A stretch of 64,000 nt of DNA. Origin: Rubripirellula reticaptiva (lineage in GTDB: Bacteria > Planctomycetota > Planctomycetia > Pirellulales > Pirellulaceae). How positions within the stretch are numbered: the stretch's first letter is position 1; each line of letters opens with the position of its first letter. Shown here piece by piece: positions 3,508 to 26,790 of the stretch. Location: positions 1,178,001 to 1,242,000 of the forward strand of contig NZ_SJPX01000002.1 of NCBI RefSeq assembly GCF_007860175.1, read 5' to 3'. The notes under the pieces were generated by a model. That model ran no database searches. It saw only the letters and a list, made by a program, of their open reading frames with translations, and was not told the origin of the DNA. Both the position numbers and the translations under genes were made by a program.

Positions 3508-3526
3508 TGACCTGGATCTGAATCGG

Positions 3527-4528: not shown

Positions 4529-7036
4529 GTCGAGTTCAATAGGGCAATGGTCAATCAGTGCGTTGACATCATGGTCTGCCGCGCCGTCTTGGCGAACCTG
4601 CCAGAGTAGATTCCCAATGTGCATTTGCTTCGGATCGCGACCGCGTCGCAGCATCGCGACCGTTTGAGCCCAGCGGTCCTTGCCACTGCCTTCGAGCGGT
4701 ATTTCGCAAAGCTCACCACCAGCACGACTCCAAAGCGAGTTGTGCGATGGGCCGGACGGATAGCTCACTGAAAGTACATCGACTGCCTCAGCCCACCATG
4801 CATCGTCGGGCATCGGGCCTTCATTGATTCCGTGGATGTATCGAGTGAACATGCCGAACTGTTTTCGACAGGCTTGTAGGGCCGGAAATAGATCAATGCG
4901 TCCCAAGTTTTTGTAATCATTCAGCAATGCCTTCGCCAAACGCCACCAGTCACGTTGCTGAATGAACTCCCCAAGCTTCGATGCGTTTACTTCCGACAAG
5001 TTCAAATTGGCCGACAGGTAGCGTACGCGAAACTGGGCAAAGTCTTCCTCGCCCAGTTCGTCAAAATTCTCAAATGTTTGAATGGCGGCTCGAAGGTCAC
5101 TTTCCTCATTGGCGGGCAACAGCTCGGCTCGATACCTCTCGGCGAGAACTTCAGCTCGCAGCACGGGTTCAAGTACCGTTGCCTTCACTGAAGAATCACC
5201 AGCGGCCTGAAACCAAGCTTCAGCCGTGGCCTCCAATACGGTTTCACGATCAATTGACTCAAGTCGTGCCCATACCAATGCCCGATCAGGGACTTCCAAC
5301 ACATTGGCAAAATGCGATTGCGAAAGCGCATGCACATACCGTGAATCAGTCAGTTCGCCGCCCGCAATTGCCTGCCAACTTAGCTGGATATTCTGATCCA
5401 TTTCGTCAACTGATCTCGGCAGTGGAAGAGAGTGTTCGGCAAAATGACAGAACACATGCCTCCAGCATGGCGAGAGGTAATCAAACGAAGCCATCAAAGC
5501 ACCGTCGTGCTCACAATCTATTGCGACCTGCACCCAATAGGCTACAACGTCAGACTTAGACGCCTCCAAAGCAAAGCGTTTATCGCCAAGCTGTGCTGAT
5601 AGCTCTGCGGCTCCGAGTGTCAAATCAGACTTGAGCGCTGCTTGCTGTCTCATCAATTCCGCAGGCGAAAGCAATTTGCTCCCGACGCGAACGTGCAGGC
5701 GAATCCAATTTTGCTGCTTGCACAGATTCAGAAGCTGCGTCGAAGCGTTCTCGCAGACTCTCTCCGCTGCGTGGAGGATTAGGCAGTCCTCGAACGAAGG
5801 TGCCATCTCTACGGAATTTTCGATCCAATCCGCCACCGCTGGTTGCTTCATTTGACAAAATAATTCAGCAACGAGTTTCGCGGCACCAGGAATACAGTTT
5901 TCAACGGCCCGTTTTGTTGCCCGCAAAACTCCTTGGGACCAAGGTAGACTTGACGCTGAGATGGCCTCTTGAACGAATAGGGTAGGGGCTTCGTCTGCGT
6001 CGACAAGCAAATCATAGAACCTTGCGTCACAGGCCTGCGAAATTCGCTTCCGCCCATTTGGGTACGCATCAACAGTTAGATTGCGAAGGAACATCAGGGT
6101 CTCAGCGGGGCCGCCCTTTACACGGGATGCCAGTTCCTCGCAAACCTTCTTCTTAATCGCCAGACCTTCAGTGGGTTTTGGTGACAGCCTCCCGACGGTT
6201 CGGAAGAGTGTAGTCACCTGCAAATCTGTCTTGTCAGGCAGATCTGTGTATTTCAGGTAGCATCGCATCAATGCTGGCAGGCTCCGAAGACTACCTAGAT
6301 TCAGACCAAGTTCTTTTGCAAACGAGTAAACTTGTTGGCGCGTCGCATGACTTACCAACGGGTTCACCGCCACGGATGTCTCATTGTTCTCCGAAGACAG
6401 GCGGACAATCTGATGGGCATTCCAGCGAGCGATTCGTTCCGTCGGTGAACAGACCAAGTCGTAGCCTTGACTCGCCCCGTCACTGGGCCGGCAGGCAATG
6501 CGAAACTGAAAATCGGGACGGGCCACTTCGGGAAGCATTTTCCAAAGCCCGATGAGAACAGAACTGAAGCCAAGCAAGCCTTCCCACACAACGGGCAGCT
6601 TCACATCTTCTGCCGCGAGAGCACCGAAAATGGCAGCAACGGGTTTGTCTGGTTCGGCGGTCTCTTGGTCGACCACTTCCGTTGAGAGTGTTACTGGACT
6701 GACTTTGCCGGATGTTACTTGTAAGCGGCCAAGTTCCGAAACCACCACTCCAAGGTCATCGAGTTGCGTGACACTTTCGGCTGGGGCAAACAGAGCTACT
6801 GTTCTGGCCATCCCTGCACGCTTCGCTGTCGTGTCGCGTATGGTGCTAAGGAAAACGTAGTTGCCATCCAGGGCGAAGCCCGCAAGCATCGGCTCGAACC
6901 CTTCCGATTCAGGCAGATCAATCGGAAGGTCGGTGTGGACCACGAGCCCCTTTGGCACGGATTCGCTGGTGGACCATAGCATTCCGTGCTCAGTGCCTTT
7001 TTCGCCGAAGATCGCGACGTCGAAACTAATTCGCAT
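4499..7036 (-). CDS. GAP1 (GTPase-associated protein 1), 845 aa
   Basis: This large soluble protein begins with a beta-rich module (MRISFDVAIFGEKGTEHGML), as in the GAP1 N-terminal domain of GTPase-centred conflict systems. The middle and C-terminal parts are long, alpha-helical and without enzyme motifs. The assignment rests on the start of the protein, its size and its place as the last gene in a GASH/DO-GTPase2/DO-GTPase1/GAP1 operon, which is the known gene order of these systems. It starts 11 bases inside the DO-GTPase1 gene, so it is translationally coupled to it. It probably serves as a scaffold or sensor linking the GTPases to an effector; that is inference from the family. Confidence 0.72.
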   Translation of the reverse strand: MRISFDVAIFGEKGTEHGMLWSTSESVPKGLVVHTDLPIDLPESEGFEPMLAGFALDGNYVFLSTIRDTTAKRAGMARTVALFAPAESVTQLDDLGVVVSELGRLQVTSGKVSPVTLSTEVVDQETAEPDKPVAAIFGALAAEDVKLPVVWEGLLGFSSVLIGLWKMLPEVARPDFQFRIACRPSDGASQGYDLVCSPTERIARWNAHQIVRLSSENNETSVAVNPLVSHATRQQVYSFAKELGLNLGSLRSLPALMRCYLKYTDLPDKTDLQVTTLFRTVGRLSPKPTEGLAIKKKVCEELASRVKGGPAETLMFLRNLTVDAYPNGRKRISQACDARFYDLLVDADEAPTLFVQEAISASSLPWSQGVLRATKRAVENCIPGAAKLVAELFCQMKQPAVADWIENSVEMAPSFEDCLILHAAERVCENASTQLLNLCKQQNWIRLHVRVGSKLLSPAELMRQQAALKSDLTLGAAELSAQLGDKRFALEASKSDVVAYWVQVAIDCEHDGALMASFDYLSPCWRHVFCHFAEHSLPLPRSVDEMDQNIQLSWQAIAGGELTDSRYVHALSQSHFANVLEVPDRALVWARLESIDRETVLEATAEAWFQAAGDSSVKATVLEPVLRAEVLAERYRAELLPANEESDLRAAIQTFENFDELGEEDFAQFRVRYLSANLNLSEVNASKLGEFIQQRDWWRLAKALLNDYKNLGRIDLFPALQACRKQFGMFTRYIHGINEGPMPDDAWWAEAVDVLSVSYPSGPSHNSLWSRAGGELCEIPLEGSGKDRWAQTVAMLRRGRDPKQMHIGNLLWQVRQDGAADHDVNALIDHCPIELDLSCHEPFVD

Positions 7037-7895
7037 CGCTAGGCTTTAGGAGTTGAGACAGGACGACGGTCAAGTCTTCCGTTTGCTTTCCTTCGGTTCC
7101 CACGACGTAGCCTTGGCTCGACGGCCCAAGCTTGGCGAATTCGGGGTCTGGCTTTTTCTTATCCAAGGATCGTCCGAGTGCGGAAAGTCCGTACACGTTG
7201 ACGCTGTCTTCACGCCAGTTTGAAGTGATAAACTGGTGCAACAATGGAAGACGCCCCTGAAGGACTTTGGCTGGAGTTCCAGAGGGGTTGATGATCTCAT
7301 CCCAGCATGTCATCAGAATGGTCAGCTTAGGTGATGAGAGCCGCGTGACTCGGTTGAGTTGCCCTGCAAAAAGCAGTATCTGCAAAAGTTCGACAAGCCC
7401 AACCTGAGTTTCAAGCGTCAATCGACAATCGGTTGATTCACTCTTTTTCTCGTCTCTTGACTTCAACTCCAATTCAATCGGCTGATCGACAATGTTCTTG
7501 AAATCTAAGATGGTGTCTGGGCGGATGAACAAGAGAATTCCATGAGCGGACATCAGCCTCGATTGCCAAGCTTCATCAACGCCCCGCGTCGCAAGCATCT
7601 GCGAAATCTGTTCGCCACCGTAGTCGGGCCAGAGTAAATCGAAATCGTTGCCTTCGTCATCAGTCAATAACAAGTCTGCGTTGTCGTACTGCGCAGTGCT
7701 GGTGTGCTTGGCGGCTAGCCCGCGATTTAGCCGATCCAGACCTTCCTGAAACAGTTCTTGATTTGGCATCGCCCTCAGTTTGAGCCCGCATGTTTTAGAA
7801 CTCAGGCGACCGTAAAGTTGAAAGGTGTAATGGGATTTCCCGACATTCGGGCCACCAACCATGATGATCGACTTTCCAGCAGTAGAACTAGACAT
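7026..7895 (-). CDS. DO-GTPase1-type double GTPase (289 aa)
   Basis: The P-loop is SIIMVGGPNVGKSHYTF with Walker A at residues 14-21, and a G3-like WPDYGGEQ lies at about residue 85. A second half with an ILMTCWDEI strand (G4-like) follows. This fits the first of the two TRAFAC-like 'double GTPases' found with GAP1 and GASH. I start it at the ATG at 7895 because AGGTAA precedes it, the P-loop then sits near the N-terminus, and it overlaps the stop of the upstream GTPase by 8 bases. A longer frame reaches 7997 but would overlap the neighbour by over 100 bases. The role is probably a nucleotide-dependent switch controlling effector release. Confidence 0.78.
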   Translation of the reverse strand: MSSSTAGKSIIMVGGPNVGKSHYTFQLYGRLSSKTCGLKLRAMPNQELFQEGLDRLNRGLAAKHTSTAQYDNADLLLTDDEGNDFDLLWPDYGGEQISQMLATRGVDEAWQSRLMSAHGILLFIRPDTILDFKNIVDQPIELELKSRDEKKSESTDCRLTLETQVGLVELLQILLFAGQLNRVTRLSSPKLTILMTCWDEIINPSGTPAKVLQGRLPLLHQFITSNWREDSVNVYGLSALGRSLDKKKPDPEFAKLGPSSQGYVVGTEGKQTEDLTVVLSQLLKPSDAN

Positions 7896-8871
7896 GACCG
7901 TTACCTCGATAACTAAGGAATCGGTCTTCCGGGTTTCCAGTTGGACAATCCGTTTGAAAATCAATCGCAACCGGCTGCTTAGTTGTCGCAAATTCAAGCG
8001 TGTCTTTTAGCGATTCAACCATCATCTCTGGATCGTTGCCCTTTTGCGGTCTCACTGACATTCGGAACGACGTCGCATCTGGAAGTTCGCGGGACAAAAT
8101 CGTTTCGACTTGTTGCTCAATCACGCCGTCAATTTTCACGTCGCTCTTGGACCAAACGATACCCACGGGCTTTTCATTGCGTTCCTCTGCCAAACGCATC
8201 GCCATAGACTCAATTGTGCTTCTGGCCACACCCGGTTCGTCGCCGGCCAGTGCGTCGGAGTCAACGAAGAACAGGTACGCATCGGCGTTGCGGATGGTCC
8301 AAACCGCACCGGGATACATGGACTCATCCGGGTTGCATGCCCAAGACGTGAACCACTCGCCGGGAGCGTCTGTTAACAGTATTTCTTGCAGACCTTCATC
8401 CTCATTTGTGCGAAGTGTGTAGTGAAGGAGGCCGGGGACACGCTCATTTGAGTTTGGAGTGTGCGGCGGGTAACTCGGCGGCAAATTCTTGTCGCGTGGG
8501 TACTGCATCGACTCGATAATCCGTTGCCAGCCGCGAAGCGTCAGCGAGCCAGCAAAACTGAAATCCTTGAGAACCGGTTCTCGCAGGCAAAGCAGATGAA
8601 TTGCCGCCAAATACGTTGTCTTTCCGGCATTGTGTGGGCCAACTAACGCGATCACGTGAGGCCGACGCTGGACTGAAACTAAATTGATGTCCAATTTGGA
8701 TAGGGCATCACTGTGCCACGGTGCAACTTGGGTGTCATGCTCTGTCGAGGATTCCTCAGCAGCAATTTCTGTGGTCTGCCAATGTTCGCAAGTGTAGCGA
8801 TCATGGTTTCCGTACAAGCACTCTCCGGTCTCATTGCATTCAGTCTGCGAGCAGTGTGAGTCTACGCCCAT
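7888..8871 (-). CDS. DO-GTPase2-type double GTPase with N-terminal Cys cluster (327 aa)
   Basis: An N-terminal Cys/His cluster (Cys7, Cys12, Cys18, Cys28 and nearby His) should bind a zinc ion. Then comes a GTPase core: Walker A GPHNAGKTT (residues 78-86), G3-like LLTDAPGEWF and G4-like IVWSKSDV. This is the arrangement of the second double GTPase in GAP1/GASH systems. It starts 10 bases inside the GASH gene and ends 8 bases inside DO-GTPase1, so the four minus-strand genes form one tightly coupled operon. The reaction is expected to be GTP hydrolysis. The zinc module may be the part that senses a ligand or nucleic acid; that is inference. Confidence 0.8.
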   Translation of the reverse strand: MGVDSHCSQTECNETGECLYGNHDRYTCEHWQTTEIAAEESSTEHDTQVAPWHSDALSKLDINLVSVQRRPHVIALVGPHNAGKTTYLAAIHLLCLREPVLKDFSFAGSLTLRGWQRIIESMQYPRDKNLPPSYPPHTPNSNERVPGLLHYTLRTNEDEGLQEILLTDAPGEWFTSWACNPDESMYPGAVWTIRNADAYLFFVDSDALAGDEPGVARSTIESMAMRLAEERNEKPVGIVWSKSDVKIDGVIEQQVETILSRELPDATSFRMSVRPQKGNDPEMMVESLKDTLEFATTKQPVAIDFQTDCPTGNPEDRFLSYRGNGHV

Positions 8872-10272: not shown

Positions 10273-11385
10273 ATGGAACAGAGCGTGTACATGGACCATT
10301 CCCAAGAACAGTCGAAAGATTTAGTCCACCTTTCGCGGCTGGCTTTGGCTGGCCGCGTTCAGGACGTACAGACGTATGTGGTTCGCATGGCACGCCGCTA
10401 CAAGAAGCGGCTCCCAGAGCTAGGTGAGCAGCTCAACGAGATCGTAAAACAGGCTCCAACTCGCCAGTCGCCCTTGCGAAGTGAGACTGTCGCGGCCATT
10501 CCCGTTGACCGGGATAGCCGCTTGCAGCTTCTGCGACACGAACTTTCGCCATCTCTTGACCATGCACCCATTTGGACTGGATCAGTCGAAGCGTCGCTCA
10601 AGCGAATCGTAATGGAGCACGAACGCCAGCAAGAGTTACTTGACGCTGGCTTGGCGCCGACACGAACGGCAATTTTCACCGGACCTCCAGGCGTTGGCAA
10701 GACAATGGCGGCGCGATGGTTGGCTCAGTCGCTCCAACGCCCGTTGCTGACGCTTGATCTATCGGCGGTAATGAGCAGCTTTCTTGGACGAACCGGAAAC
10801 AATGTCCGGCACGTTCTCGACTACGCGAAGGGTGTACCTTGCGTACTCTTACTAGACGAACTTGATGCCATCGCAAAACGACGCGATGATGACCAGGAAG
10901 TTGGCGAACTCAAGCGGCTGGTGACGGTTCTTCTGCAGGAGGTGGATGATTGGCCCGAAGGAGGCTTACTTGTTGCTGCGAGTAATCACGCCGAATTACT
11001 TGATCCGGCGGTTTGGCGACGCTTTGAAAAGAAGGTGGAGTTCGAGTGTCCTGGACGCGATGCGATTCAATTGGCTGTGAATGTGTTTCTTGGCGGGCAT
11101 GAAGAGATGTCCAACGCTTGGCAATCCGCGTTGGCATTTTTGTTTGCGGGCATGTCTTTTAGTGACATTGAATGCGAGGCGACAGAACTGAAGCGACAGG
11201 CCGTGCTGGAATCAAGCACGCTGGAAGAACGATTGATTGATTTTGTGCATCAGCGAATCGCCTCGCAAACGAAGGCTGGGAAAAAGCAGGTGGCTGCGGC
11301 ACTGGTCGAAGCTGGAATGTCGCAGCGTGCGATCAACGAATTAACGGGACTCAGCCGCGACACCATTCGCAAGATTGAGCTGTGA
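10273..11385 (+). CDS. ietA: IetA-like AAA+ ATPase of an IetAS defence pair (370 aa)
   Basis: This AAA+ ATPase belongs near the FtsH/proteasomal-ATPase branch: Walker A GPPGVGKT (137-144), Walker B LLLDELDAIAKRRDD, a sensor-1 ASNHAELLDPAVWRRF with Arg fingers, and a C-terminal helix-turn-helix (GMSQRAINELTGLSRDTI). Paired with the subtilase 14 bases downstream it matches IetAS, known from Agrobacterium plasmids as an incompatibility or plasmid-exclusion trait and also reported as an antiphage system. The C-terminal HTH suggests DNA contact, perhaps autoregulation or recognition of invading DNA. The likely role is to restrain or feed the IetS protease. The start could be 10273 or 10291. Confidence 0.85.
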   Translation: MEQSVYMDHSQEQSKDLVHLSRLALAGRVQDVQTYVVRMARRYKKRLPELGEQLNEIVKQAPTRQSPLRSETVAAIPVDRDSRLQLLRHELSPSLDHAPIWTGSVEASLKRIVMEHERQQELLDAGLAPTRTAIFTGPPGVGKTMAARWLAQSLQRPLLTLDLSAVMSSFLGRTGNNVRHVLDYAKGVPCVLLLDELDAIAKRRDDDQEVGELKRLVTVLLQEVDDWPEGGLLVAASNHAELLDPAVWRRFEKKVEFECPGRDAIQLAVNVFLGGHEEMSNAWQSALAFLFAGMSFSDIECEATELKRQAVLESSTLEERLIDFVHQRIASQTKAGKKQVAAALVEAGMSQRAINELTGLSRDTIRKIEL

Positions 11386-11399
11386 GGGAAAACTGAAAC

Positions 11400-13622
11400 A
11401 TGGCGGACCAACCAAGATTCCTGCTGGGAAACGGGCATAACCTAACGAGCCGCGTGAAGGTCACCAAAATCTTGGAGCCAAAGCCGCCGCCCTACGACAT
11501 CAAGACGGCCAAGGCGAGACTCGCTCCTCAATTTTCGTCCACTGCCAAGTCGCTAGCGGAGATCCCAGACGCCGCTTGCCCGGACGACTACGCGGTCGCC
11601 TTGCTAACACTTCATCCTGAATACACAGCAAAGAGTTATTTCCCTGGCGAACTTTTGCGCGAGGCTCGCATGGAGGCAATTGGCTCACGACCAGCTCGGG
11701 TTAAACCTCAAGCCTGGAACAAAAAAGCTAGCCCGGAAGAGGCACCGACAACCCAGCTATACGTTGCCGCAAGCCGTCGCAATTTCGCAAGCTTCGCCAA
11801 CCAACTACCAGGCCTGTCCGAATCTGACACGAGCACGAAGCAACTCTTTGAAATTGAGGTTTTCAAGGCACTGGATGTCAATGACCGAACGCAAAGAGTT
11901 GACCGAACAGCGAAAGACCCGTTGCTCGAAGTCGTGTTGCATACATCGGGCGTTCCTCGCGCTGGCCGCATTGTTGAGGCGTTTGAGGAATACGCAGACA
12001 CGCTCAACCTGCGTCCTGATTTTGATCGCCGATTTGAAGTTGGGTCGCTTTGTTTCTTACCAGTTCGAGCGGCAAATACTGACATTGATAAGCTTGGGCA
12101 GTTCGCTTTTCTGCGAACCATCCGGCAAATGCCTGAATTGCGACCGATGAAACCAATCATCCGAACATCAGGTAAGTCCAAGCCCTTTGCAGTAAAGTTG
12201 CCCAAGGATCCTCCGCTCGATCCGCAGGTAAAGGCTGCGGTCTTCGATGGTGGTTTGACTGACGAAGCAAGCTTTGGTTCGTTCGTGCATGGACACGAAC
12301 CCGTTGGTATCGGAGCGCCGGTCGAGACATTCGTCGATCATGGCACATCGGTTACGTCGGCGCTTCTGTACGGTCCGCTCCGAAAAGGCGATACGGTTCG
12401 GCAACCTTACGGTCAAGTCGACCACTATCGAGTCCTCGACGATCATTCTGCCAAAGATCCCTACGATCTTTACGACACCCTTGCCCGCATTCGTGATGTC
12501 CTGCAAGTTCGGAAGTACGGGTTCGTCAACCTGAGCATTGGCCCGTCGCTACCAATCGAAGACGATGACGTTCACGCCTGGACCGCCGTCTTGGATTCGC
12601 TTCTCTCAAGCGGCGAGACTTTGGCGACGGTTGCGATCGGCAACGCCGGCGAAAAAGACCGGCCTTCTGGGAACGCACGTGTTCAAGTGCCATCGGACAG
12701 CGTCAATGCGTTGGCTGTCGGAGCAACAGACAGATCGAATGAAAAATGGGCGCGTGCAAAATACAGTTGCTATGGTCCTGGGCGAAGTCCCGGCGTCATC
12801 AAACCCGAGGTCGTGTCCTTCGGTGGTTGCTCAGCAGAACCGTTCTTCGTCATGGATTCGTCACTAACAATTGCGATCCCGGAGGCGGGGACAAGTCTCG
12901 CTTCGCCCGCAACGCTGCGTCTTGGCATGGGAGTGCGTGCTCACTTCGGCGCAGACTTTTCAGCGCTCGCCATCAAGGCGTTGCTGGTCCACTGCTGCGA
13001 ACCGCACGAGACACAATCGTCGGATGAGATAGGTTGGGGGAGAGTGCCCGGCGACGTGGAACAGCTTGTCGTTTGCGGTGATGGCGTCGCGCGCGTCGTG
13101 TTCCAAGGTGAGTTGACACCAGGACAATACCTGCGCGCCCCGGTTCCCATGCCGGCTGGCAAGCTAACAGGAATGGTCTCGATCTCAGCCACGTTCTGCT
13201 TCGCCAGCGAAACGGACCCGAATGATCCGGGGAACTACACGCGAGGCGGATTGGACGTGACATTCCGGCCAAACGCGGACAAGTATGCTGTAGATGCTGC
13301 CCATCCAAAATCGAGCTCGTTCTTCCGCAGTTCCGACTACGACACTGAGGGGTCGCTACGACGAAACGCCCACAAATGGGAAACAACTTTGCATCGGCAA
13401 CGGAGCTTTCAGCCAAAATCCTTGAAAGACCCAATGTTCGACGTCCACTACCAAGTTCGTGAATCGGGCCGCACAACGAGAGCGAGCGACAAGATCCGGT
13501 ATGCAATGATCGTTACCATCAACGCTCCCAAAATGCCGGACCTGTACGATAAAATTGTCCAACGGTTCCAAACTCAGATTGAGCCGATGACGCCGCTAAT
13601 CGAAGTTCCAATCCGCGTTTAG
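11400..13622 (+). CDS. ietS: IetS-like subtilisin-family serine protease (740 aa)
   Basis: This is an S8 family peptidase with an intact triad: Asp283 (AVFDGG), His314 (VDHGTSV) and Ser499 (GTSLASPA), plus the oxyanion Asn415 (AIGNAG). About 270 residues precede the catalytic domain and about 200 follow it, as in IetS. No signal peptide is visible, so the protease works in the cytoplasm, unlike most subtilases. GAGGGAA lies 9 bases before the ATG and overlaps the ietA stop region, which indicates co-translation. In the IetAS family both genes are needed for activity, and the protease is taken to be the killing or interference component. Confidence 0.87.
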   Translation: MADQPRFLLGNGHNLTSRVKVTKILEPKPPPYDIKTAKARLAPQFSSTAKSLAEIPDAACPDDYAVALLTLHPEYTAKSYFPGELLREARMEAIGSRPARVKPQAWNKKASPEEAPTTQLYVAASRRNFASFANQLPGLSESDTSTKQLFEIEVFKALDVNDRTQRVDRTAKDPLLEVVLHTSGVPRAGRIVEAFEEYADTLNLRPDFDRRFEVGSLCFLPVRAANTDIDKLGQFAFLRTIRQMPELRPMKPIIRTSGKSKPFAVKLPKDPPLDPQVKAAVFDGGLTDEASFGSFVHGHEPVGIGAPVETFVDHGTSVTSALLYGPLRKGDTVRQPYGQVDHYRVLDDHSAKDPYDLYDTLARIRDVLQVRKYGFVNLSIGPSLPIEDDDVHAWTAVLDSLLSSGETLATVAIGNAGEKDRPSGNARVQVPSDSVNALAVGATDRSNEKWARAKYSCYGPGRSPGVIKPEVVSFGGCSAEPFFVMDSSLTIAIPEAGTSLASPATLRLGMGVRAHFGADFSALAIKALLVHCCEPHETQSSDEIGWGRVPGDVEQLVVCGDGVARVVFQGELTPGQYLRAPVPMPAGKLTGMVSISATFCFASETDPNDPGNYTRGGLDVTFRPNADKYAVDAAHPKSSSFFRSSDYDTEGSLRRNAHKWETTLHRQRSFQPKSLKDPMFDVHYQVRESGRTTRASDKIRYAMIVTINAPKMPDLYDKIVQRFQTQIEPMTPLIEVPIRV

Positions 13623-19374: not shown

Positions 19375-20280
19375 TTACAGTTGCACATTGTTGTCCATTC
19401 GCAGTCGGACTTCGGCGAGCGCTGTCGTTAATGCTTCCTCGACCTGCTCGTAGTTGCAGTCCTTCGGAGTCGAGACGACGACCTTGACGCCCTCCTCACT
19501 TGCGAAAGTCAGTCTCGCTCCCTTTCGCGTGGGACTGCTCTTTCCTCGACGTTGCTTAACTTGGCTTTGCGCCTTGGCTGCTGTAAACGTAACGCTATCA
19601 CCGCCGCTGTATAAAGCCGCAAGAATTTGATCATCCGACGATAGTTTGGAAAGCTCGTAAGCCGCGAGCGCGGAAAGCTTGCCTTCTTCAACGCGCTGGC
19701 GGACTTCTTCGGGGAGTCGCAACAGGGCCAGAGAACGTGTTACCTTCGACGGAGTCACTCGGATCGATTCGGCGAGTTGCTTACTGTTCCATCCGGTCAT
19801 CTCTCGGAGCTGTTCAAAGGCTTTGGCTTCTTCGATCGGTTTCAGGTTTTCACGAAGCAGATTCTCTATCAACTGTTGCTGGAGCACTTCACTCTTCGAT
19901 AGTGAGTCCTCGACAAACTGACAATTGACGAGTTTCAACCCGGCTTGTTTCGATGCACGATACCGACGTTCCCCAGAAATGATAATCCAAGTTGACAGTT
20001 CCTCGGACCAACGGACTCTAATCGGCTGAAGCTGCCCCTTCTCCTTGATGCTATTGGCGAGTTGCTCAATCTCGTCATCACTGAAATCGACACGAGGTTG
20101 TTCTGGATCAGGAATGAGTTTGTCGATGTCGAGCGTCCCAAACGATCGCAGAGCTCGGCGCCCGACATCCTTGGTCTTTGCGACGGGACTAAGTGTTGGA
20201 CGGGATTCGTGGTCTCGCACGCCCATCGACTCGTCCAAATTCCCCTGAATGCGTTGAAGAGTGTTTCTAGTATTAGTCAT
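19375..20280 (-). CDS. parB: ParB-type partition protein (301 aa)
   Basis: The N-terminal ParB/Spo0J CTPase domain contains LIPDPEQPR, the QLQPIRVR-like strand and the signature GERRYRA (103-109). The central HTH (GWNSKQLAESIRVTPSKVTRSLALL) binds the parS site. A short basic linker (KQRRGKSSPTRKG) and a C-terminal dimer-forming region follow. It loads on plasmid DNA at parS and stimulates ParA, so that plasmid copies are separated at division. It is 6 bases behind parA in the same operon. parS itself was not identified with certainty; the palindromes at 21124 and 21299 are the candidates in this window. Confidence 0.95.
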   Translation of the reverse strand: MTNTRNTLQRIQGNLDESMGVRDHESRPTLSPVAKTKDVGRRALRSFGTLDIDKLIPDPEQPRVDFSDDEIEQLANSIKEKGQLQPIRVRWSEELSTWIIISGERRYRASKQAGLKLVNCQFVEDSLSKSEVLQQQLIENLLRENLKPIEEAKAFEQLREMTGWNSKQLAESIRVTPSKVTRSLALLRLPEEVRQRVEEGKLSALAAYELSKLSSDDQILAALYSGGDSVTFTAAKAQSQVKQRRGKSSPTRKGARLTFASEEGVKVVVSTPKDCNYEQVEEALTTALAEVRLRMDNNVQL

Positions 20281-20286
20281 TCTGTT

Positions 20287-21099
20287 CTACGCCATCGTTT
20301 TTTGGTTCTTGCGACTCGCGATCCGCGTCATCAATTCATCGACGAGCCTTCGCATACTTAAAGCCGCTTTTGACTTTGGAGCGTAGACTTCGACGGGTTG
20401 CCGGCAAGCCAAAGCCACCTTGAAGGCTGAGACTTCGGGCATCACTGTGTTTAACGCCATTTCTTCGTACAGCGTTCTCAACCTTGCCTCGTAAGAACGA
20501 TGGACCAGCAGTCGTTTGTCGTATCGTGTAATCAGATGACCAAGACGCCGCAGGTTTGGGTTAAGTCTGCGAGCATTGTCAATGCACTGATGAACCGCTC
20601 GAAGTCCTTGAGTGCCGAAGTCTTCCGGTGGCACGGGGATAACAACAAAGTCCGCCGCAATCATTGCGTTCCAACTGCACTGATACAGATTCGGTGGGCA
20701 ATCGATCAACGTGATGTCGTAGTCGCCAACTTCTTCCAAGGCGTCTCGAAGTGAATACTGAATCATGCCCGATGACTCAGGTGTTGGTGCGTTGAAGGCC
20801 GCCAGATGCTGGTTGGTAGGAAGCACGGAGATGTTTTCAAAGTCCGTCTCGCGAATTAACTGTTTTCGATCAATAAAGAACGTCGACTCATCAAAAATTG
20901 CCGCAAGCGTCTCCTCGGGCGGAAGGTTCTCGATTTCATCGCTTCCAAAGAATCCTTGGCTCAATGAGCCTTGAGGATCGGCATCGACTGCCAAAACAGA
21001 ATAGCCCAGACCAGCAAATGCACCGGCGAGATGAAAACAGGTCGAACTCTTTCCGCACCCACCTTTCTGATTGATCAAACACAGGGTCACTCCTGCCAT
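20287..21099 (-). CDS. parA: ParA-type partition ATPase (270 aa)
   Basis: This is a deviant Walker A ATPase of the ParA/Soj type: LINQKGGCGKSSTCFHLA with the signature lysine, AVDADPQGSLSQ (A' motif) and ITLIDCPPNLY (Walker B). It lacks the long N-terminal HTH of type Ia ParA proteins, so it is of the shorter type and may not repress its own promoter. It works with ParB to move plasmid copies. AAGGAAGCG precedes the ATG. It is divergent from repA, with about 340 bases of palindrome-bearing DNA between them. Confidence 0.95.
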   Translation of the reverse strand: MAGVTLCLINQKGGCGKSSTCFHLAGAFAGLGYSVLAVDADPQGSLSQGFFGSDEIENLPPEETLAAIFDESTFFIDRKQLIRETDFENISVLPTNQHLAAFNAPTPESSGMIQYSLRDALEEVGDYDITLIDCPPNLYQCSWNAMIAADFVVIPVPPEDFGTQGLRAVHQCIDNARRLNPNLRRLGHLITRYDKRLLVHRSYEARLRTLYEEMALNTVMPEVSAFKVALACRQPVEVYAPKSKAALSMRRLVDELMTRIASRKNQKTMA

Positions 21100-21349: not shown

Positions 21350-21440
21350 TGAGCTAGGTCGAGGGGGCGAGAGTGTTTTTGGTTTCCGAGTGACGTCCAA
21401 CGTGCTACGTGCTTTAAGCAGGTTAAAGCAACGGAGGCAC

Positions 21441-22712
21441 ATGAAGAAACAAAACGAAAAATCCAAACGAGTCACTGGCATGGGGCAACTGTCAATTGTC
21501 GAACACGCTCTATGTCCCCTCGATTCACGGACATCACTGAAAGAGAATTTGGTGCATGCCGCGAAACATTCTTTCGTGAACAAGTCCGGACAGCGAGGTT
21601 ATGCGAAAGCACGCGTGTTCTGCCCACTTGGTCTCTCAGCCGCTGACGAGCTTTACCTTTGGGGTTTGCTGGCTCTTAGCCTTTTACCCGCCGAACCAGA
21701 GTCGGAGCTAGTGGCGACGCCCCACTGGATTCTCAGGCAACTAGGAATCATCAACCAGGGAAGTAAACGTGGCGGAAGGCAGTACAAAGCATTTGGTGAA
21801 GCACTGCGTCGTCTGTCAGTCGTCAACTACATGAGCGACAACTTTTACGATCCGAATCGTTCTGAGCATCGACGCGTTAGCTTCAGTTTTTTCAGCTACA
21901 GCTTGCCCCAGGACGCTCGCTCGTCACGAGCATGGCGAATCGCTTGGGACCCAATCTTTTTCGAGATCGTGAAGTCTAGCGCCGGTCACTTCCGCTTTGA
22001 CCTTGCGGTCTACCGTGAACTCGACGCGGCTAGTCGACGTTTGTTTCTCTTTGTCAGCAAGGTGCTGTCGAGGCGAACGCATTTGCGAGCGATCGGGTTG
22101 GAGCAACTCGCCACGGACTTGCTTGGCTTCAGCCCCACGTTGGCGCCGCGTGAGATGAAGGCGAAGGTGAAGCGCTGTCTTAAGCGGCTAATGGACCTTC
22201 ACGTGCTTGCGGATGCGGAAGTGTTCAAGACCAATTGCGGCAATCAGTTTGTACGACTGCATCGCGGCCCCTACTTTCAGATGGCCAAGCAGGGTAGCTA
22301 CCGACATTCTCCGGTCGACTCCCCTACTCTGGATACACTTCGCGAGATTGGTTTTGAGGACGGGCCAGCGATTCGTATGATTCAGCGTTTCTCCCCTCGC
22401 CTACTCAACGAATGGTGTGACATTACCCAAGCCGCCATTGAACGGCACGGAATGTCATTCTTCCATAAAAGCCCAATGGCGTTTTTGGTGGACTCACTCG
22501 ACAAAGCTTCAAAAGGCAATCGAACGCCTCCGGACTGGTGGGCGGATCTGAAGCGAAAAGAAGCCAAGCTTCATGAGATGACTCCGCAAAGCAATGAAGT
22601 ATTTCAAAAAGTCCGAGCAGAAATTTTCCGAGACCAAGTTACCTCGAAGATCCAGGATTCCTCCCCCACTTCCGTCTCTTCAGCGAGTGATATCTTGAGA
22701 TCAGTTGGATAG
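21441..22712 (+). CDS. repA: plasmid replication initiator RepA, RPA-type (423 aa)
   Basis: The part from residue about 55 matches the replication initiator protein A pattern: GYAKARVFCPLGLSAADELY, LWGLLALSLL, a SGR-YKAFGEALRRLSVVNY-like helix, then two winged-helix units with a central LDAASRRLFLFVSKVLSRR. I chose the ATG at 21441 because ACGGAGGCAC precedes it; the open frame runs back to 21300 through the palindrome and hairpin. The protein should bind the repeats just downstream (22860-22949) and open the origin with DnaA. It is divergent from parAB, the usual order on repABC-unrelated low-copy plasmids. Family membership is from sequence pattern. Confidence 0.85.
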   Translation: MKKQNEKSKRVTGMGQLSIVEHALCPLDSRTSLKENLVHAAKHSFVNKSGQRGYAKARVFCPLGLSAADELYLWGLLALSLLPAEPESELVATPHWILRQLGIINQGSKRGGRQYKAFGEALRRLSVVNYMSDNFYDPNRSEHRRVSFSFFSYSLPQDARSSRAWRIAWDPIFFEIVKSSAGHFRFDLAVYRELDAASRRLFLFVSKVLSRRTHLRAIGLEQLATDLLGFSPTLAPREMKAKVKRCLKRLMDLHVLADAEVFKTNCGNQFVRLHRGPYFQMAKQGSYRHSPVDSPTLDTLREIGFEDGPAIRMIQRFSPRLLNEWCDITQAAIERHGMSFFHKSPMAFLVDSLDKASKGNRTPPDWWADLKRKEAKLHEMTPQSNEVFQKVRAEIFRDQVTSKIQDSSPTSVSSASDILRSVG

Positions 22713-23026: not shown

Positions 23027-23854
23027 ATGGCTTTTCTCGACTCAACCGACTGGCAGATCCATCCGTTTCTACGCGATGAGTTGGTTGCTGCTACCTTCGG
23101 CGATTTCTACATGCTCGACGTCTTCGAGCGGTCGATGGAACTGCTGCATCGTCACCTCCGCAAGGGAACGATCCTAGAGCACACCAAACGCATCCTGAGC
23201 GAATATCCGCCGATTGAACTCACCGATCCTCTGAACGGCTACAAATCGGCTGATCTGACGGATTTGTTTAAGCTTGGCAAGTTTCGCTATGACGGGGATG
23301 AGAATCGACTTTGCATTTGGTCAATGCGGCACGAACATTGTGACTTTGCCGTCGGCTCAGCTTGGCTGAATGACAACAACATCGAAATGAACTGGCGTTA
23401 CTTTCTTGAAGAAGCTGAAGAGAATAACGTTGTATTCCCGAATGAGCCAATCGGTCGCGAGCGGTTGGCGTGGGAAGTTGCAGGAATTGTGCTGCACGAA
23501 GTCGTACACAATCAGGGATTCGCGCATCCAGACTACAGGGAAGTGATTGACGGCAACGCGGCGAAACTTCCGAATCTGGTCGAAGCGAGAGAATCAGAGT
23601 TTGATCCGCAATATGAATACTTCAGGTCATTACCCTGTGTCGCCGAACAAGCGGTTTACCTAATCGCAAAAGACGATTTTGCTGGCACCAACTTTGATCC
23701 GTCGCGGAATCGCCGTTGGCCCACGCCGTGCGCCTGTCATGTTCGGCGTCGGCCAAAGACGGATGGACCGTTCGGGGGAATGCCTCTCGAACTGCCGATG
23801 AGCAATGATCGTGATAAATCAGTTGGAGTTCGTGGCCATCAAGACGGTCGCTGA
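23027..23854 (+). CDS. protein with metzincin zinc motif (275 aa)
   Basis: The recognisable motif is GIVLHEVVHNQGFAHPDY: HExxHxxGxxHxD as in metzincin metallopeptidases (three His ligands, catalytic Glu, extra Asp). No Met-turn is obvious downstream. There is no signal peptide, so the protein seems cytoplasmic. I start at the ATG at 23027 because a frame extending to 22916 would read through the iterons and the DnaA box. A C-terminal part (CACHVRRRPK) is basic. It ends 35 bases inside the convergent DnaQ-like gene. Its position next to the origin may be incidental. Peptidase activity is inferred from the motif only. Confidence 0.65.
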   Translation: MAFLDSTDWQIHPFLRDELVAATFGDFYMLDVFERSMELLHRHLRKGTILEHTKRILSEYPPIELTDPLNGYKSADLTDLFKLGKFRYDGDENRLCIWSMRHEHCDFAVGSAWLNDNNIEMNWRYFLEEAEENNVVFPNEPIGRERLAWEVAGIVLHEVVHNQGFAHPDYREVIDGNAAKLPNLVEARESEFDPQYEYFRSLPCVAEQAVYLIAKDDFAGTNFDPSRNRRWPTPCACHVRRRPKTDGPFGGMPLELPMSNDRDKSVGVRGHQDGR

Positions 23855-24487
23855 ACGTGATGACAGATTCGTTTCGGATCTCTTGGGCATCCAACGTTGC
23901 ATGGCCCGAAAAATTCCGATGTTTGCTTCAACGCAGGCGAGCAAATCGTGTCGAACCGTTTGTCGCAGCTCAACGCCAAAATAGTCCGCAAGTGTTGCAA
24001 ATCTGAAATCGCTAATAGGTGTCATTTGTCTGTCTTCGTAAAGAAGCCAAGTCGCTCGCTGCATCGTACATAGGGGACGCATTGAGGCAGGGAAGAACGC
24101 GTGATGACGTGCGAACCAGGCATCTAGAAACGCTGATTTCATGGTTGCATCGTAGGCAACTAACTGAGCAAACGGTGAGTCGGTTTCGTCGTCCGCGAAC
24201 TGACCCATGGCTGAATGCCTGCGCAAGAAGCTTTGCGCGCGTTGTAGAGCATCGAGTTCAGGTAATGCGAAATGGCGCCACGTCCGTCGGTCATATATTC
24301 CGCCGAACAACGACTTTTGTTCCACATCTTTTTGCCGGAAGCGGATCTTCGTTTCAAAGCGATCTATTTCGCCAAAGTGCTCGTCGACGGCGATCGCCGC
24401 AAACTGGATGATTGGATGAGTCAGTTCATTTCCCGCTACGATGAGATCGAAGAAGACTAACCGCTGATCAACTGTTTTTGGCTCCAT
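23819..24487 (-). CDS. DnaQ-fold (DEDDh) exonuclease-like protein, catalytic residues mostly lost
   Basis: The plan of a DnaQ-type 3'-5' exonuclease is visible: VFFDLIVAGN then IIQFAAIAVDEHFGEIDRF (Exo I), LVAYDATMKSAFLDAWF (Exo II) and VRHDLLACVEANIGIF (Exo III). The first Asp and the Exo III His are kept, but the DxE glutamate is Ile, the Exo II Asp is changed and the Exo III Asp is Cys. It therefore probably binds rather than cuts nucleic acid, or acts by altered residues. I start at MEPKTVDQ (24487); a longer frame reaches 24541. It converges with and overlaps the metzincin-like gene by 36 bases. Confidence 0.6.
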   Translation of the reverse strand: MEPKTVDQRLVFFDLIVAGNELTHPIIQFAAIAVDEHFGEIDRFETKIRFRQKDVEQKSLFGGIYDRRTWRHFALPELDALQRAQSFLRRHSAMGQFADDETDSPFAQLVAYDATMKSAFLDAWFARHHAFFPASMRPLCTMQRATWLLYEDRQMTPISDFRFATLADYFGVELRQTVRHDLLACVEANIGIFRAMQRWMPKRSETNLSSRSATVLMATNSN

Positions 24488-24739
24488 ACAACGCAGGTAC
24501 CATTTCCCGGCTTGATTGTCCATGAAACGCAAGACGTACAAGTAAAATGAAGTTTGGATCGCCTTAGTGCAGGGATAAAAACGACGCTATGCTCATTATC
24601 CTTGCTTAACTCTCGGGTTGCGCTATGGAAAATGTAGAGGCTGGGCTCGGATTCCCGGCTTCGGCTGTCGCTTTCGTTAAACGCGCTGCTGCGAGTGTGC
24701 CGCAACTTCGGCATGCCAGTGGTGGCACGCACGACAAAC

Positions 24740-25880
24740 TTTGATAGCCAATCGCACCCGGTAAACCTTGGCTTACCACCAAGGCTAAGGGCATGGAGTT
24801 AACCTCCCGTGACGCGATTGGCCCGTAGAGCTGGATGCATCGAGAGGTGCTTGTCCAGTTCGACGGAGGCTTCGTTGAGTAATCCGGTTTTGACTATCGG
24901 GCCTCGTATGTCCGAGAAATCTCACCGAGTAATACAACGATTCGATCCGATGAGATTGATCCCGCTGGGGACTGTATTCCAGATCGGGGGCGATGCGGAA
25001 AAACCTCGCCGCGTTCTTGTCGAACGCGATCCGAGGCCGTCAATCTCCAAAGCAGGTGAGGTTTAATCATGAGAATGATGAGTAATCCTGCACACGGGGT
25101 TCGGGGTCATCGACTTCGTTCAACGTGTCCGACGTGGGGAGCTTCGAGCCTGGCGACAGGCCGAACCGAGCGTGACTTGACTCGGGGACCGCTGGCAAAT
25201 CCAGCGGCTGCGAATAGCTCAACCATGAAAGGCCCGCGAGGGCTTGTCGGTGAACTTTGCGAAAGACGCTGCCGAGCAGCGAAAGACCTTGGTCGATGGG
25301 TAAGGGGATGCTTCCATGTTCGGTCCCCAGAAATGCGAGACGGTTCAATTGAACTTGAGTCGCTAAACGATGCTAGCTCTGACGAGCCATGCATACGGCC
25401 AACGTCCCTCCCGCTAAAACGGGATAGCGACGTGATTCGCAAGGTGAAGGAATTGACTAACGCAGGAAGTTCAGCGGCAGCCGGTGTGGTTACCGGTGCC
25501 CGGAGCGAGTGCAAGCTCGCGAGTCATCCGGGTGTTTCAAACGCCGTTGAATGGGAGTGTGGTCCAAGTAGAGAGTCGAACGAGAATCGGGCGGAAGCTC
25601 GATTTTTTGTTTGGGCGATGTATCCGGCAAGGCAGTCGGAACTCGTTGCTGTCGTAACAGATGGTGCTGACGGCCATAGCACGACGAAAGGACTGACGGG
25701 CAGTATCTAGCTGTCAAAGTTTTGTGTTGATGACTGAGTTTTCAGTCAACGATCCTTGAAAGGGCGCGAGCGGCCTCAGAAGACCTGTATTGACGTACGG
25801 GCCTTCTGAGGCGGCGGATCGACGGCGGACAAGAGGAGTGCGTCTGCACTCAACTTGTCCGCCGGCCGGTTTTTTTGGGT
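24740..25880 (+). ncRNA. candidate large structured RNA, family unknown
   Basis: The stretch 24542-26112 has no gene I trust but is packed with stems. GCCAATCGC (24747-24755) pairs with GCGATTGGC (24814-24822) around CCTTGG/CCAAGG (24766-24784). GAGCTGGA pairs with TCCAGTTC (24828-24861) and AATCTCA with TGAGATT (24918-24957). CCTCG-GCGTTC pairs with GAACGC-CGAGG (25004-25036). GGTTCGG pairs with CCGAACC (25098-25167), enclosing GCCTG-GCGA-CAGGC. CCGCTGG pairs with CCAGCGG (25189-25207), and AGGCCC-GCGA-GGGCTT (25230-25245) has another GNRA loop. A nested stem CCCGGA/GCGAG (25499-25532) and a 10-bp stem (25773-25812) follow, then an intrinsic terminator at 25876. This suggests one transcript of about 1.1 kb; the ends are estimates. 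IscB-associated HEARO, GOLLD-type and group II intron RNAs are classes to test; no IscB or intron protein is present. Confidence 0.45.
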
Positions 25881-25892
25881 GACGGGCAGTAT
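25694..25892. repeat. 13-bp direct repeats flanking the RNA 3' end
   Basis: TGACGGGCAGTAT occurs exactly at 25694-25706 and at 25880-25892. The 173 bases between hold three hairpins and the terminator. They could be a target-site duplication left by a small inserted element, or a repeat with a role in the RNA locus. Confidence 0.55.
25823..25876 (+). terminator. strong intrinsic terminator of the structured RNA
   Basis: CGGCGGACAAG (25823-25833) pairs perfectly over 11 bp with CTTGTCCGCCG (25854-25864). The inner GAGTGC/GCACTC stem (25836-25851) has a GTCT loop. A run of seven T follows at 25870-25876. There is no gene just upstream on this strand, so it must end a non-coding transcript. Confidence 0.8.
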
Positions 25893-26112
25893 GAATTAGC
25901 GTGGGCCAATTCAAGAATATGGTTCCGCGCAATTTGAAATTGCTGCCGTGTGCGGAGCTTTACGCTTGGCGAAACGCATCTGTCTGCGTCGAAGCCTGAC
26001 GTTTGCTCAAACTGCACGACTCGTGTTGTCATTTCGGTTCGCGGCTTTCTGGAGGGATTGTGCCTTAAACAATCCTTCCCATTTGGTCTTTCCCAGTTCG
26101 GCAAGGAGGCAC

Positions 26113-26790
26113 ATGAAATATCGCGTCGAAGCAACTTCAATCCAGGGATTCGTTCAGCAAATCGCCTGTTCATATCTTCGTCACGGGTACTGGTTTTACG
26201 TGCGAGGGTTTATTCCACTCGACAAGGATCCGTCGATCATCGACGCCAAATTGCTTACAAAGTACAAAATTGACGTGAGCGAATCGACGCGAGCGCGCCG
26301 CAAGAAGTCAGGACGAGCAAATCTACAGCTAATCCGTCATCAACACGTTTTTGTCATTTTGGCGACAAAGGGGATTCATCAATTCTACAAAGAAGAGGCA
26401 AATGCGATTCAAGATATCCGGCGCAGGCCACTTCAGTACGCAGGATATAGTGTCAGCTACAAACCGGGTGGTCGCAAGAAGGACGGCAGTCGCGATGATA
26501 AGTGGCATGCGCACGTTGCGATGACTCGTGATCTCTACCTTAATCTGAAAGCAACGTTCACTGAGCGAGCAAGAGTGGAGTCTGTCGCGAAGCTCGCGCT
26601 TGCCTTTTATGAATTGCCGATTGCTCCATACGCACCGGTGCGACGTCAACTGTTGACGATTCATCGCGAGGTGAACCGCATCCGAAAGCTTGCGGGAAAG
26701 CAAACTGTGCCAATTGATGTTCTACCGCTTCGTCGACGGGTTGTTCGGCCGTTCGAGCACCGTAGAGAGAAGAACACGAGTGCAAAGTAA
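26113..26790 (+). CDS. basic protein of unknown function with a HAH motif (225 aa)
   Basis: The start is the ATG at 26113, with AAGGAGGC just upstream; an open frame runs back to 25948 but without a ribosome site. The protein is Lys/Arg-rich (RARRKKSGRANLQLIRHQH, then GRKKDGSRDDKWHAHVAM) and has no membrane segment. DDKWHAHVAMTRDLY could be a His-hydrophobic-His pair with a later Tyr, as in HUH nucleases or transposases, but the rest does not clearly fit. The C-terminal HREVNRIRKLAGKQTVP is a basic helix. Its place 220 bases after the terminator of the structured RNA suggests a link between the two. I do not recognise the family. Confidence 0.65.
   Translation: MKYRVEATSIQGFVQQIACSYLRHGYWFYVRGFIPLDKDPSIIDAKLLTKYKIDVSESTRARRKKSGRANLQLIRHQHVFVILATKGIHQFYKEEANAIQDIRRRPLQYAGYSVSYKPGGRKKDGSRDDKWHAHVAMTRDLYLNLKATFTERARVESVAKLALAFYELPIAPYAPVRRQLLTIHREVNRIRKLAGKQTVPIDVLPLRRRVVRPFEHRREKNTSAK

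What the first reader, a model, noticed from the sequence alone, without database searches (positions are those of the whole stretch)
24740..25880. Large structured non-coding RNA with its own terminator
About 1.1 kb without a trustworthy gene holds at least ten perfect or near-perfect stems, including a 9-bp long-range closing stem, two stems with GCGA tetraloops and nested helices, and ends at an 11-bp intrinsic terminator with seven T. This density and the GNRA loops are marks of ornate RNAs or ribozymes. No intron protein, IscB or TnpB accompanies it, so it may be a new class on a planctomycete plasmid.
Basis: partly seen in the sequence, partly recalled or inferred. Interest (0 to 1): 0.85.

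Follow-up and report, generated by a model that had tools for sequence, protein, structure and literature searches.

The report
Permuted ribozyme that makes RNA circles
The 1.1-kb stretch is a self-splicing RNA whose parts are in swapped order, a known but rare class expected to cut out a tiny RNA circle; here it sits with a fixed partner gene and plasmid-type genes in planctomycetes, which may help reveal what the class is for.

Summary
The structured RNA is real, but it is not a new class: it is a circularly permuted (CP) group II ribozyme (Roth et al. 2021, PMC8637638). Domain 5 (24828-24861) and domain 6 (to 24951) come first, then a 36-nt segment predicted to leave as an RNA circle (24952-24987), then the GGGCG 5' splice site and domains 1-4. 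Compensatory changes support D6 (9 of 10 pairs), the D1 core (29 of 39 pairs) and the class-specific P2-D2 contact (35 of 36 loci). A model from planctomycete loci finds plasmid pPNAP05 and, with filters off, pTT8, both named in the paper; its splice-site rule gives the published 32-nt circle for pPNAP05. ParB lies 3-5 kb upstream at 13 or more of 63. The 'terminator' is not conserved. Apparently new against the paper's main text: planctomycete and cyanobacterial members, the fixed RNA-acpG order, the par neighbourhood, a hairpin before acpG. Splicing and function are untested.

The parts
24621..25939 (+). whole conserved CP group II RNA region (outer bounds of DNA similarity to another genus; transcript ends unknown)
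   Evidence: (G053 match, query 82-1400 from 24540)
24747..24822 (+). 5' domain closed by a 9-bp stem (24747-24755 / 24814-24822) around P2
24766..24784 (+). P2 hairpin; loop CUUACCA 24772-24778 predicted to pair with the D2 loop
24828..24861 (+). domain 5: AGC triad, GNRA-type GAGA loop, 8 + 5 bp with a bulge
   Evidence: (RF00029, 39.1 bits; gathering score 40)
24864..24951 (+). domain 6: basal helix 24864-24867/24946-24949, upper helix to 24877 / from 24935; bulged branch-point A predicted at 24945, 7th nt from the 3' splice site
   Evidence: branch point inferred
24952..24987 (+). 36-nt segment between 3' and 5' splice sites, predicted to be released as an RNA circle
   Evidence: 30 of 30 loci examined give 16-82 nt
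24988..24998 (+). 5' splice-site motif GGGCGATGCGG, start of domain 1
25134..25252 (+). domain 1 core helices including AAUAGCUC..GAAA (25213-25230)
25304..25328 (+). domain 1 hairpin with putative EBS1 (25316-25322), pairing with IBS1 at 24981-24987; only 4 of 7 positions pair in the window itself
25657..25671 (+). domain 2 hairpin loop region; UGGUG 25662-25666 pairs with the P2 loop (domain 2 assignment inferred from the P2 contact)
25683..25702 (+). conserved GACGAAAGGACTGACGGGCA, after the putative domain 2 loop (domain assignment inferred)
26043..26079 (+). leader hairpin before acpG: GGC..[11-bp stem]GCC..[stem]; function unknown
26113..26787 (+). AcpG homologue, 225 aa, pI 10.5, directly downstream on the same strand
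23819..24541 (-). DEDD/DnaQ-like exonuclease, divergent neighbour
19375..21099 (-). ParB and ParA
21435..22712 (+). conserved protein beside parAB, replication-initiator-like by context only
   Evidence: no family hit; model poor

Best explanation
The region encodes a circularly permuted group II ribozyme with domain order P2-D5-D6-(36 nt)-D1-D2-D3-D4. Most likely mechanism: the RNA folds into a group II active site; the bulged adenosine of D6 (A24945) attacks the 5' splice site before GGGCG at 24988; the freed 3' end of the 36-nt segment attacks the 3' splice site after 24951; a 36-nt RNA circle and a T-shaped branched RNA result. Shown here: homology, permuted order of D5, D6, D1 and the P2-D2 contact, covariation, splice-site motifs. 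Inferred from published work on five relatives: the chemistry. Inferred only from gene order: that the basic protein AcpG, encoded just downstream, is made with the RNA and binds or assists it, and that the pair serves, or rides on, a plasmid-type par module.
For: D5-D6 matches RF00029 (39.1 bits, E 7.9e-6). D6, not used to select the 28 rows: 98.6% of 280 cells pair, 9 of 10 pairs change on both sides, slid controls at most 47.1%; D5 and D6 together 98.4%, 17 of 23 pairs, where D5 pairing was itself a selection rule. D1 core on 52 sequences: 95.8% paired, 29 of 39 pairs changed on both sides. GGGCG opens D1. Predicted circles 16-82 nt in 30 of 30 loci; the paper gives 15-86. Model R2 finds pPNAP05 (E 2.2e-10), where the same rule gives 32 nt as published, and pTT8 with filters off (20.5 bits, E 8.7e-5, next best 7.9). 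P2-D2 complement in 35 of 36 loci, shuffles mean 22.9, 0 of 2000 as high. AcpG-like gene within 3 kb downstream, same strand, at 54 of 63 loci; profile match to the pTT8 AcpG candidate: probability 84.3%, E 7.2e-6.
Against: No transcript, branch or circle has been seen in this organism. R1 and R2 with default filters missed pTT8; R1 (D1 core) did not find the D1 of pTT8 (its best hit overlaps the D5-D6 region), and in pPNAP05 the right place was only second best (14.8 bits, E 0.025). EBS1-IBS1 is the best diagonal (z 4.4) but weak in the window itself (4 of 7). RF00029 is just below its curated score. The D6 and D1 structures were read from the alignments they are counted on, and one of five measures for D6 (further pair types) is not above shuffles (122 of 500 as high). 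The outer ends and the D3/D4 assignment are not resolved; the conserved block (up to 1.3 kb) is longer than the published average of about 900 nt. Nine of 63 RNA loci lack a detected AcpG (four are cut by a contig end within 1,060 nt) and 11 genomes have an AcpG-like hit without a strong RNA.
Confidence: 0.93

Rival explanations
1. A decayed or rearranged fragment of an ordinary group II intron that only retains a D5-D6 hairpin.
For: D5-D6 scores as RF00029; this genome has four reverse transcriptase matches elsewhere.
Against: Conservation and covariation run through the permuted order in tens of genomes; no RT match falls inside the window; the P2-D2 pseudoknot is a CP-only feature according to the paper; the same partner gene follows at 54 of 63 loci.
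Confidence: 0.03
2. A genuinely new RNA class that only resembles group II introns locally.
For: No Rfam family reaches its gathering score in the window.
Against: Matches the published class in order, motifs, circle length and partner protein; a model built here finds two published members.
Confidence: 0.03
3. Protein-coding region (frames at 24809 or 25069).
For: Both frames are open in the window; third positions are slightly over-represented among differences in the 25069 frame (37%).
Against: In-frame stops in 8 of 9 (25069) and 6 of 9 (24809) relatives; 37% and 31% of differences at third positions is close to one third; compensatory base changes instead.
Confidence: 0.01
4. CP group II relic: correct class but no longer active or useful in this organism.
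For: A second, diverged copy with its own AcpG-like gene is present, so one copy could be spare; window IBS-EBS pairing is weak; at least 20 same-genus genomes lack it.
Against: The columns invariant in the 28-row alignment are intact in the window, and the one same-genus copy is 94% identical over the whole length.
Confidence: 0.1

Closest known systems
CP group II ribozymes ('T-large' RNA), Roth et al. 2021, iScience 24:103431 (PMC8637638)
   Same: D5-D6 ahead of D1, P2 with loop-loop contact to D2, AGC triad, bulged A in D6, GGGCG 5' splice site, circle within 15-86 nt, no intron protein, AcpG nearby, plasmid-type neighbours
   Different: The main text names Deinococcus-Thermus, Firmicutes and Proteobacteria and does not mention planctomycetes or cyanobacteria (Data S1 not held); here Planctomycetota and Cyanobacteriota. 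There AcpG sits in any orientation or is absent; here it follows the RNA on the same strand at 54 of 63 loci. The conserved block is up to 1.3 kb against about 900 nt. A leader hairpin precedes acpG in 27 of 68 loci.
Canonical group II introns (Rfam RF00029 Intron_gpII)
   Same: D5-D6 sequence and structure; splice-site logic
   Different: Canonical order is D1-D6 with splice sites at the ends and often an encoded RT; here the order is permuted, splice sites are internal and reversed, no RT in the window
AcpG (taken here as TTH_RS11295 on pTT8)
   Same: Collinear profile match over 171 columns, next to a CP group II RNA, basic
   Different: Pairwise BLAST is not significant (E 0.054)
GOLLD, ROOL, OLE, HEARO
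   Same: Size and ornate structure only (recalled)
   Different: No Rfam match at gathering score

Membership tests
CP group II ribozyme | D5 and D6 lie 5' of D1 | tested here: met
CP group II ribozyme | D2, D3 and D4 follow D1 in order | tested here: inconclusive
   D2 placed by its contact with P2; D3 and D4 not resolved
CP group II ribozyme | D5 with AGC triad, GNRA-type loop and bulge | tested here: met
   (independent Rfam model), where AGC and pairing were selection rules
CP group II ribozyme | D6 with bulged adenosine and internal loop | tested here: met
   helices covary and the A is invariant in 28 rows; its use as branch point not testable here
CP group II ribozyme | Reversed splice sites: 3' NU before a linker, GGGCG after it | tested here: met
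   AU invariant before the linker and GGGCG after it in 28 rows; rows were chosen by the GGGCGA motif with one mismatch allowed
CP group II ribozyme | Linker (circle) of 15-86 nt | tested here: met
   16-82 nt in 30 of 30; window 36 nt
CP group II ribozyme | P2 loop-D2 loop pseudoknot (CP-specific) | tested here: met
   35 of 36 loci; 16 of 52 rows dropped; an earlier automatic test failed
CP group II ribozyme | EBS1-IBS1 pairing | tested here: inconclusive
   best diagonal, z 4.4 over 50 loci, weak in the window; the first search by contiguous 6- and 7-mers found nothing
CP group II ribozyme | P1-3' end and D3-D1 pseudoknots, J2/3, epsilon-epsilon', zeta-zeta' | not tested
   Figures of the paper not held; domains 3-4 not assigned
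CP group II ribozyme | No intron-encoded RT within or beside it | tested here: met
   four RVT_1 matches in the genome, none in the window
CP group II ribozyme | AcpG gene nearby (frequent, not obligatory) | tested here: met
CP group II ribozyme | Recognisable kinship with published members | tested here: met
   pPNAP05; pTT8, filters off only; the D1 model R1 is weak or silent on both
CP group II ribozyme | Self-splicing to circle and branched RNA | not testable with these tools
   needs in vitro transcription
Canonical group II intron | Order D1-D6 with splice sites at the ends | tested here: not met
Intrinsic terminator at 25823-25876 | Stem directly followed by a conserved U-run | tested here: not met

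The most novel reading that the evidence does not exclude
In planctomycetes the CP group II ribozyme and AcpG form one conserved unit, encoded together downstream of a divergent par module, with acpG controlled by a pseudoknot-like leader hairpin. The unit would be a ribozyme-protein device of plasmid-derived elements, for example one that uses the branched RNA or the circle to regulate acpG or replication, giving the class its first assignable biological role.
Probability: 0.3. Interest if true: 0.75.

Novelty: new member of a known kind. Interest (0 to 1): 0.5.

Why it matters
CP group II ribozymes are active in vitro, but their biological role is unknown. This locus and its relatives add phyla not named in the main text of the describing paper, 63 strong loci in 46 of 396 genomes of one order, a near-fixed RNA-then-acpG arrangement, and a recurrent par neighbourhood in part of them. 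That makes two questions directly testable: whether AcpG binds the ribozyme, and whether the pair matters for replicon maintenance.

Tried and rejected
New RNA class: rejected (paper). Coding frames: rejected (its 'frameshift indel' column also counts gaps shared by both rows and was not used). Intrinsic terminator: rejected. The first mixed alignment took minus-strand loci in the wrong orientation and was discarded. EBS1-IBS1 by contiguous 6- and 7-mers found nothing. A first automatic D2-hairpin pick gave no signal (5-mers 5 of 39 against a shuffle mean of 2.7, 4-mers 18 against 15.1) because it often chose other stems; a direct search for the complement in a 50-nt stretch replaced it, on 36 of 52 rows. 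Rows were kept only if the P2 loop ended CCA, TCA, CTA or CCC; for three (L059, L064, L088) the loop was set by hand, and three misread rows (L096, L098, L127) were removed by hand. AlphaFold models of AcpG (mean pLDDT 44.9) and of the Rep-like protein (53.0) were too poor; Foldseek on the latter gave no match at E 0.001 or better. Viral contigs: no AcpG relative with the one pattern used. Plasmids: no DNA-level match to the RNA. The ParB list was cut short by the tool, so 13 of 63 is a lower bound.

Full report
What was checked. The folding energy is lower than in any of 20 shuffles (z -5.7). Rfam gives nothing at gathering score for the whole window. A permissive search of 24540-25950 gives RF00029, group II intron D5-D6, at 24826-24888, 39.1 bits against a gathering score of 40, and four much weaker hits. 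DNA search of 197 genomes finds matches in 30, the own genome included: 94% identity in one same-genus genome, 71-75% over 1.0-1.3 kb in five other genera of the family, and shorter or weaker matches in the rest. Twenty same-genus genomes are listed without a match, so the element is patchy.

The clue. [quoted passage not shown] That is the reverse of a normal group II intron. Roth et al. 2021 (PMC8637638; abstract and parts 1-6 of 9 of the main text read, with passages) describe this: circularly permuted group II ribozymes of about 900 nt with D5-D6 first, internal reversed splice sites (NU ... GGGCG), a linker of 15-86 nt released as a circle, a P2-D2 loop-loop pseudoknot not known in canonical introns, no intron protein, and an often adjacent gene, acpG. 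The main text names Deinococcus-Thermus, Firmicutes and Proteobacteria; the words 'planctomycet' and 'cyanobacter' do not occur in it; its Data S1 is not held. No paper of the PMC library holds both 'circularly permuted group II' and 'planctomycet'. A search from 2021 on lists 15 of 16 papers: Roth et al. and 14 others, none of which extends the class by its title or abstract start; I did not open those.

Structure by covariation. 28 sequences of the D5-D6-5' splice site region (A1) and 52 of the D1 core (A2) were aligned. Rows of A1 were chosen by a D5 pattern (AGC, required pairs, GNRA loop) and a GGGCGA pattern with one mismatch allowed, so those features are partly conserved by selection. 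D6 was not used to select: 98.6% of 280 cells paired, 9 of 10 pairs changed on both sides, covariation score 0.807 against 0.04-0.14 when slid; only the count of further pair types does not exceed shuffles. The basal D6 pair next to the 3' splice site goes C-G 17, U-A 8, A-U 3. D5 and D6 together: 98.4%, 17 of 23 pairs. D1 core: 95.8% of 1,988 cells, 29 of 39 pairs changed on both sides, with a structure predicted from the same alignment. By the rule '3' splice site after the AU that follows the D6 basal helix, 5' splice site before GGGCG', 30 of 30 loci give circles of 16-82 nt; the window gives 36 nt, 24952-24987. On pPNAP05 the same rule gives 32 nt, the length stated in the paper. The P2 loop has a 4-nt complement in the D2 stretch in 35 of 36 loci, with types ACCA/UGGU, AUCA/UGAU, GCCA/UGGC and ACUA/UAGU; none of 2000 shuffles reached this (mean 22.9, maximum 32; 16 of 52 rows dropped because P2 was not picked reliably, and an earlier automatic version gave no signal). 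EBS1-IBS1 is weaker: one diagonal stands out (256 pairs against 229 +/- 6, z 4.4, 50 loci), but only 4 of 7 positions pair in the window itself.

Kinship with published members. Covariance model R2 was built from A1: loci of the window's order, one planctomycete plasmid (pK2D_1), and one contig titled only 'MAG: bacterium' (L057). That the order is planctomycete follows from K23_9, whose contig is among the relatives. In a ten-source search R2 found, outside its training set, pPNAP05 at 133-256 (46.9 bits, E 2.2e-10), Leptolyngbya pLBX (E 3.4e-15), a Planococcus plasmid (1.6e-11) and two copies on a Calothrix plasmid. Of these only pPNAP05 is named in the paper's main text as far as I read it. 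pTT8, also named there, was missed with default filters but is the clear best hit with filters off (20.5 bits, E 8.7e-5, next 7.9), beside the gene taken here as acpG. pTT8 also carries GGGCGACCCGGA, ATAGCTCGCGTCCGAAA and GGCGACGTGA in the same order. Model R1 (D1 core) finds pLBX (E 2.5e-17, not in its training set), misses the D1 of pTT8, and on pPNAP05 places the right site second.

Partner gene. The reading frame at 26113-26787 has relatives in 56 of 396 genomes of the order, the own one included. Pairwise BLAST with the pTT8 protein is not significant; profile comparison of 38 relatives with three Thermus proteins aligns 171 columns collinearly, probability 84.3%, E 7.2e-6. That the pTT8 protein is TTHC007/AcpG is inferred from its size and its place divergent to the RNA; the old locus tag is not shown in the record. 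All 67 sequences translated are basic, pI 9.7-11.0. The window protein has no Pfam, PHROG, NCBIfam or PADLOC hit and no PDB relative below E 0.09. R2 in the 396 genomes gives 63 loci of 60 bits or more in 46 genomes, some of them in its training set; 54 of the 63 have the AcpG-like gene within 3 kb downstream on the same strand (median 1,188 nt). Four of the nine without it are cut by a contig end within 1,060 nt. Sixteen weaker hits (28-49 bits) were not assigned and may be ordinary group II introns; two of them do have an AcpG-like gene downstream. In a phylum-wide draw of 392 genomes, seven genomes outside the order have hits of 85 bits or more. The home genome has a second, diverged copy with its own AcpG-like gene on another contig.

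Neighbourhood. Six of 16 longer related loci (L039-L054, several cut by contig ends) carry ParB, ParA, a conserved protein of unknown family and AcpG together, with the RNA between; these six belong to the closest relatives. The more distant loci and the second copy of the home genome do not show this block. A ParB_N match lies within 10 kb of 13 of the 63 RNA loci, always upstream and on the opposite strand, the nearest at 2.9-5.0 kb (the ParB list was truncated). The unknown protein looks like a replication initiator only by context. One relative carries the block on a contig titled as a complete chromosome (Planctomycetes bacterium K23_9), so 'plasmid' should read 'plasmid-type module'.

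A second small element. 18-56 nt before acpG, 27 of 68 loci show GGC, a short spacer, a hypervariable stem whose loop holds GCC, and the closing strand (20 shuffles: mean 3.75, maximum 7; control region 4 of 68). Two of the 27 (L095, L102) look like chance fits, and the same-genus relative L059 does not pass. In many it is followed by a T-rich stretch, so it may be a terminator or attenuator, or an H-type pseudoknot through GGC/GCC. It has no Rfam match.

Verdict. A new member of a known, rare ribozyme class. The mechanism proposed is the published one transferred by homology; steps shown here are anatomy and evolution, not chemistry. The biological role remains open.

Noticed in passing
window 26043-26079: Hairpin with GGC before it and GCC in the loop, same layout before acpG in 27 of 68 loci although the stem sequence changes; possible pseudoknot or attenuator.
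   Followed up: partly
G000:C4:525224-527217 (locus L003 from 10225): Second, diverged CP group II RNA with its own AcpG-like gene (38% identity) in the same genome.
   Followed up: partly
L090, L091, L089: CP group II RNA plus AcpG-like gene on cyanobacterial plasmids (Leptolyngbya; Calothrix with two RNA copies) and on a Planococcus plasmid.
   Followed up: partly
window 10273-13622: IetA/IetS defence pair (PADLOC E 1.4e-83 and 3.1e-44).
   Followed up: no
window 7026-8871: Adjacent double-GTPase proteins DO-GTPase1 and DO-GTPase2 (Pfam).
   Followed up: no
window 815-4528: Caspase-like and trypsin-like proteins flanking a third frame that looks like an alpha/beta hydrolase by eye; reminiscent of conflict systems.
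   Followed up: no
window 27523-62855: Several metal-efflux gene sets (HlyD/CusB by Pfam; CusA-like and P-type ATPase by eye).
   Followed up: no
window 23819-24541: DnaQ/DEDD-like exonuclease divergent to the RNA, with a relative in 6 of the 16 loci L039-L054.
   Followed up: partly
L038 5199-5332 (pTT8, minus strand): Sub-threshold Rfam match to Actinomyces-1 RNA (30.5 bits, gathering 39.1, E 0.017) inside the pTT8 region with the CP RNA; possibly chance, possibly a related fragment.
   Followed up: no
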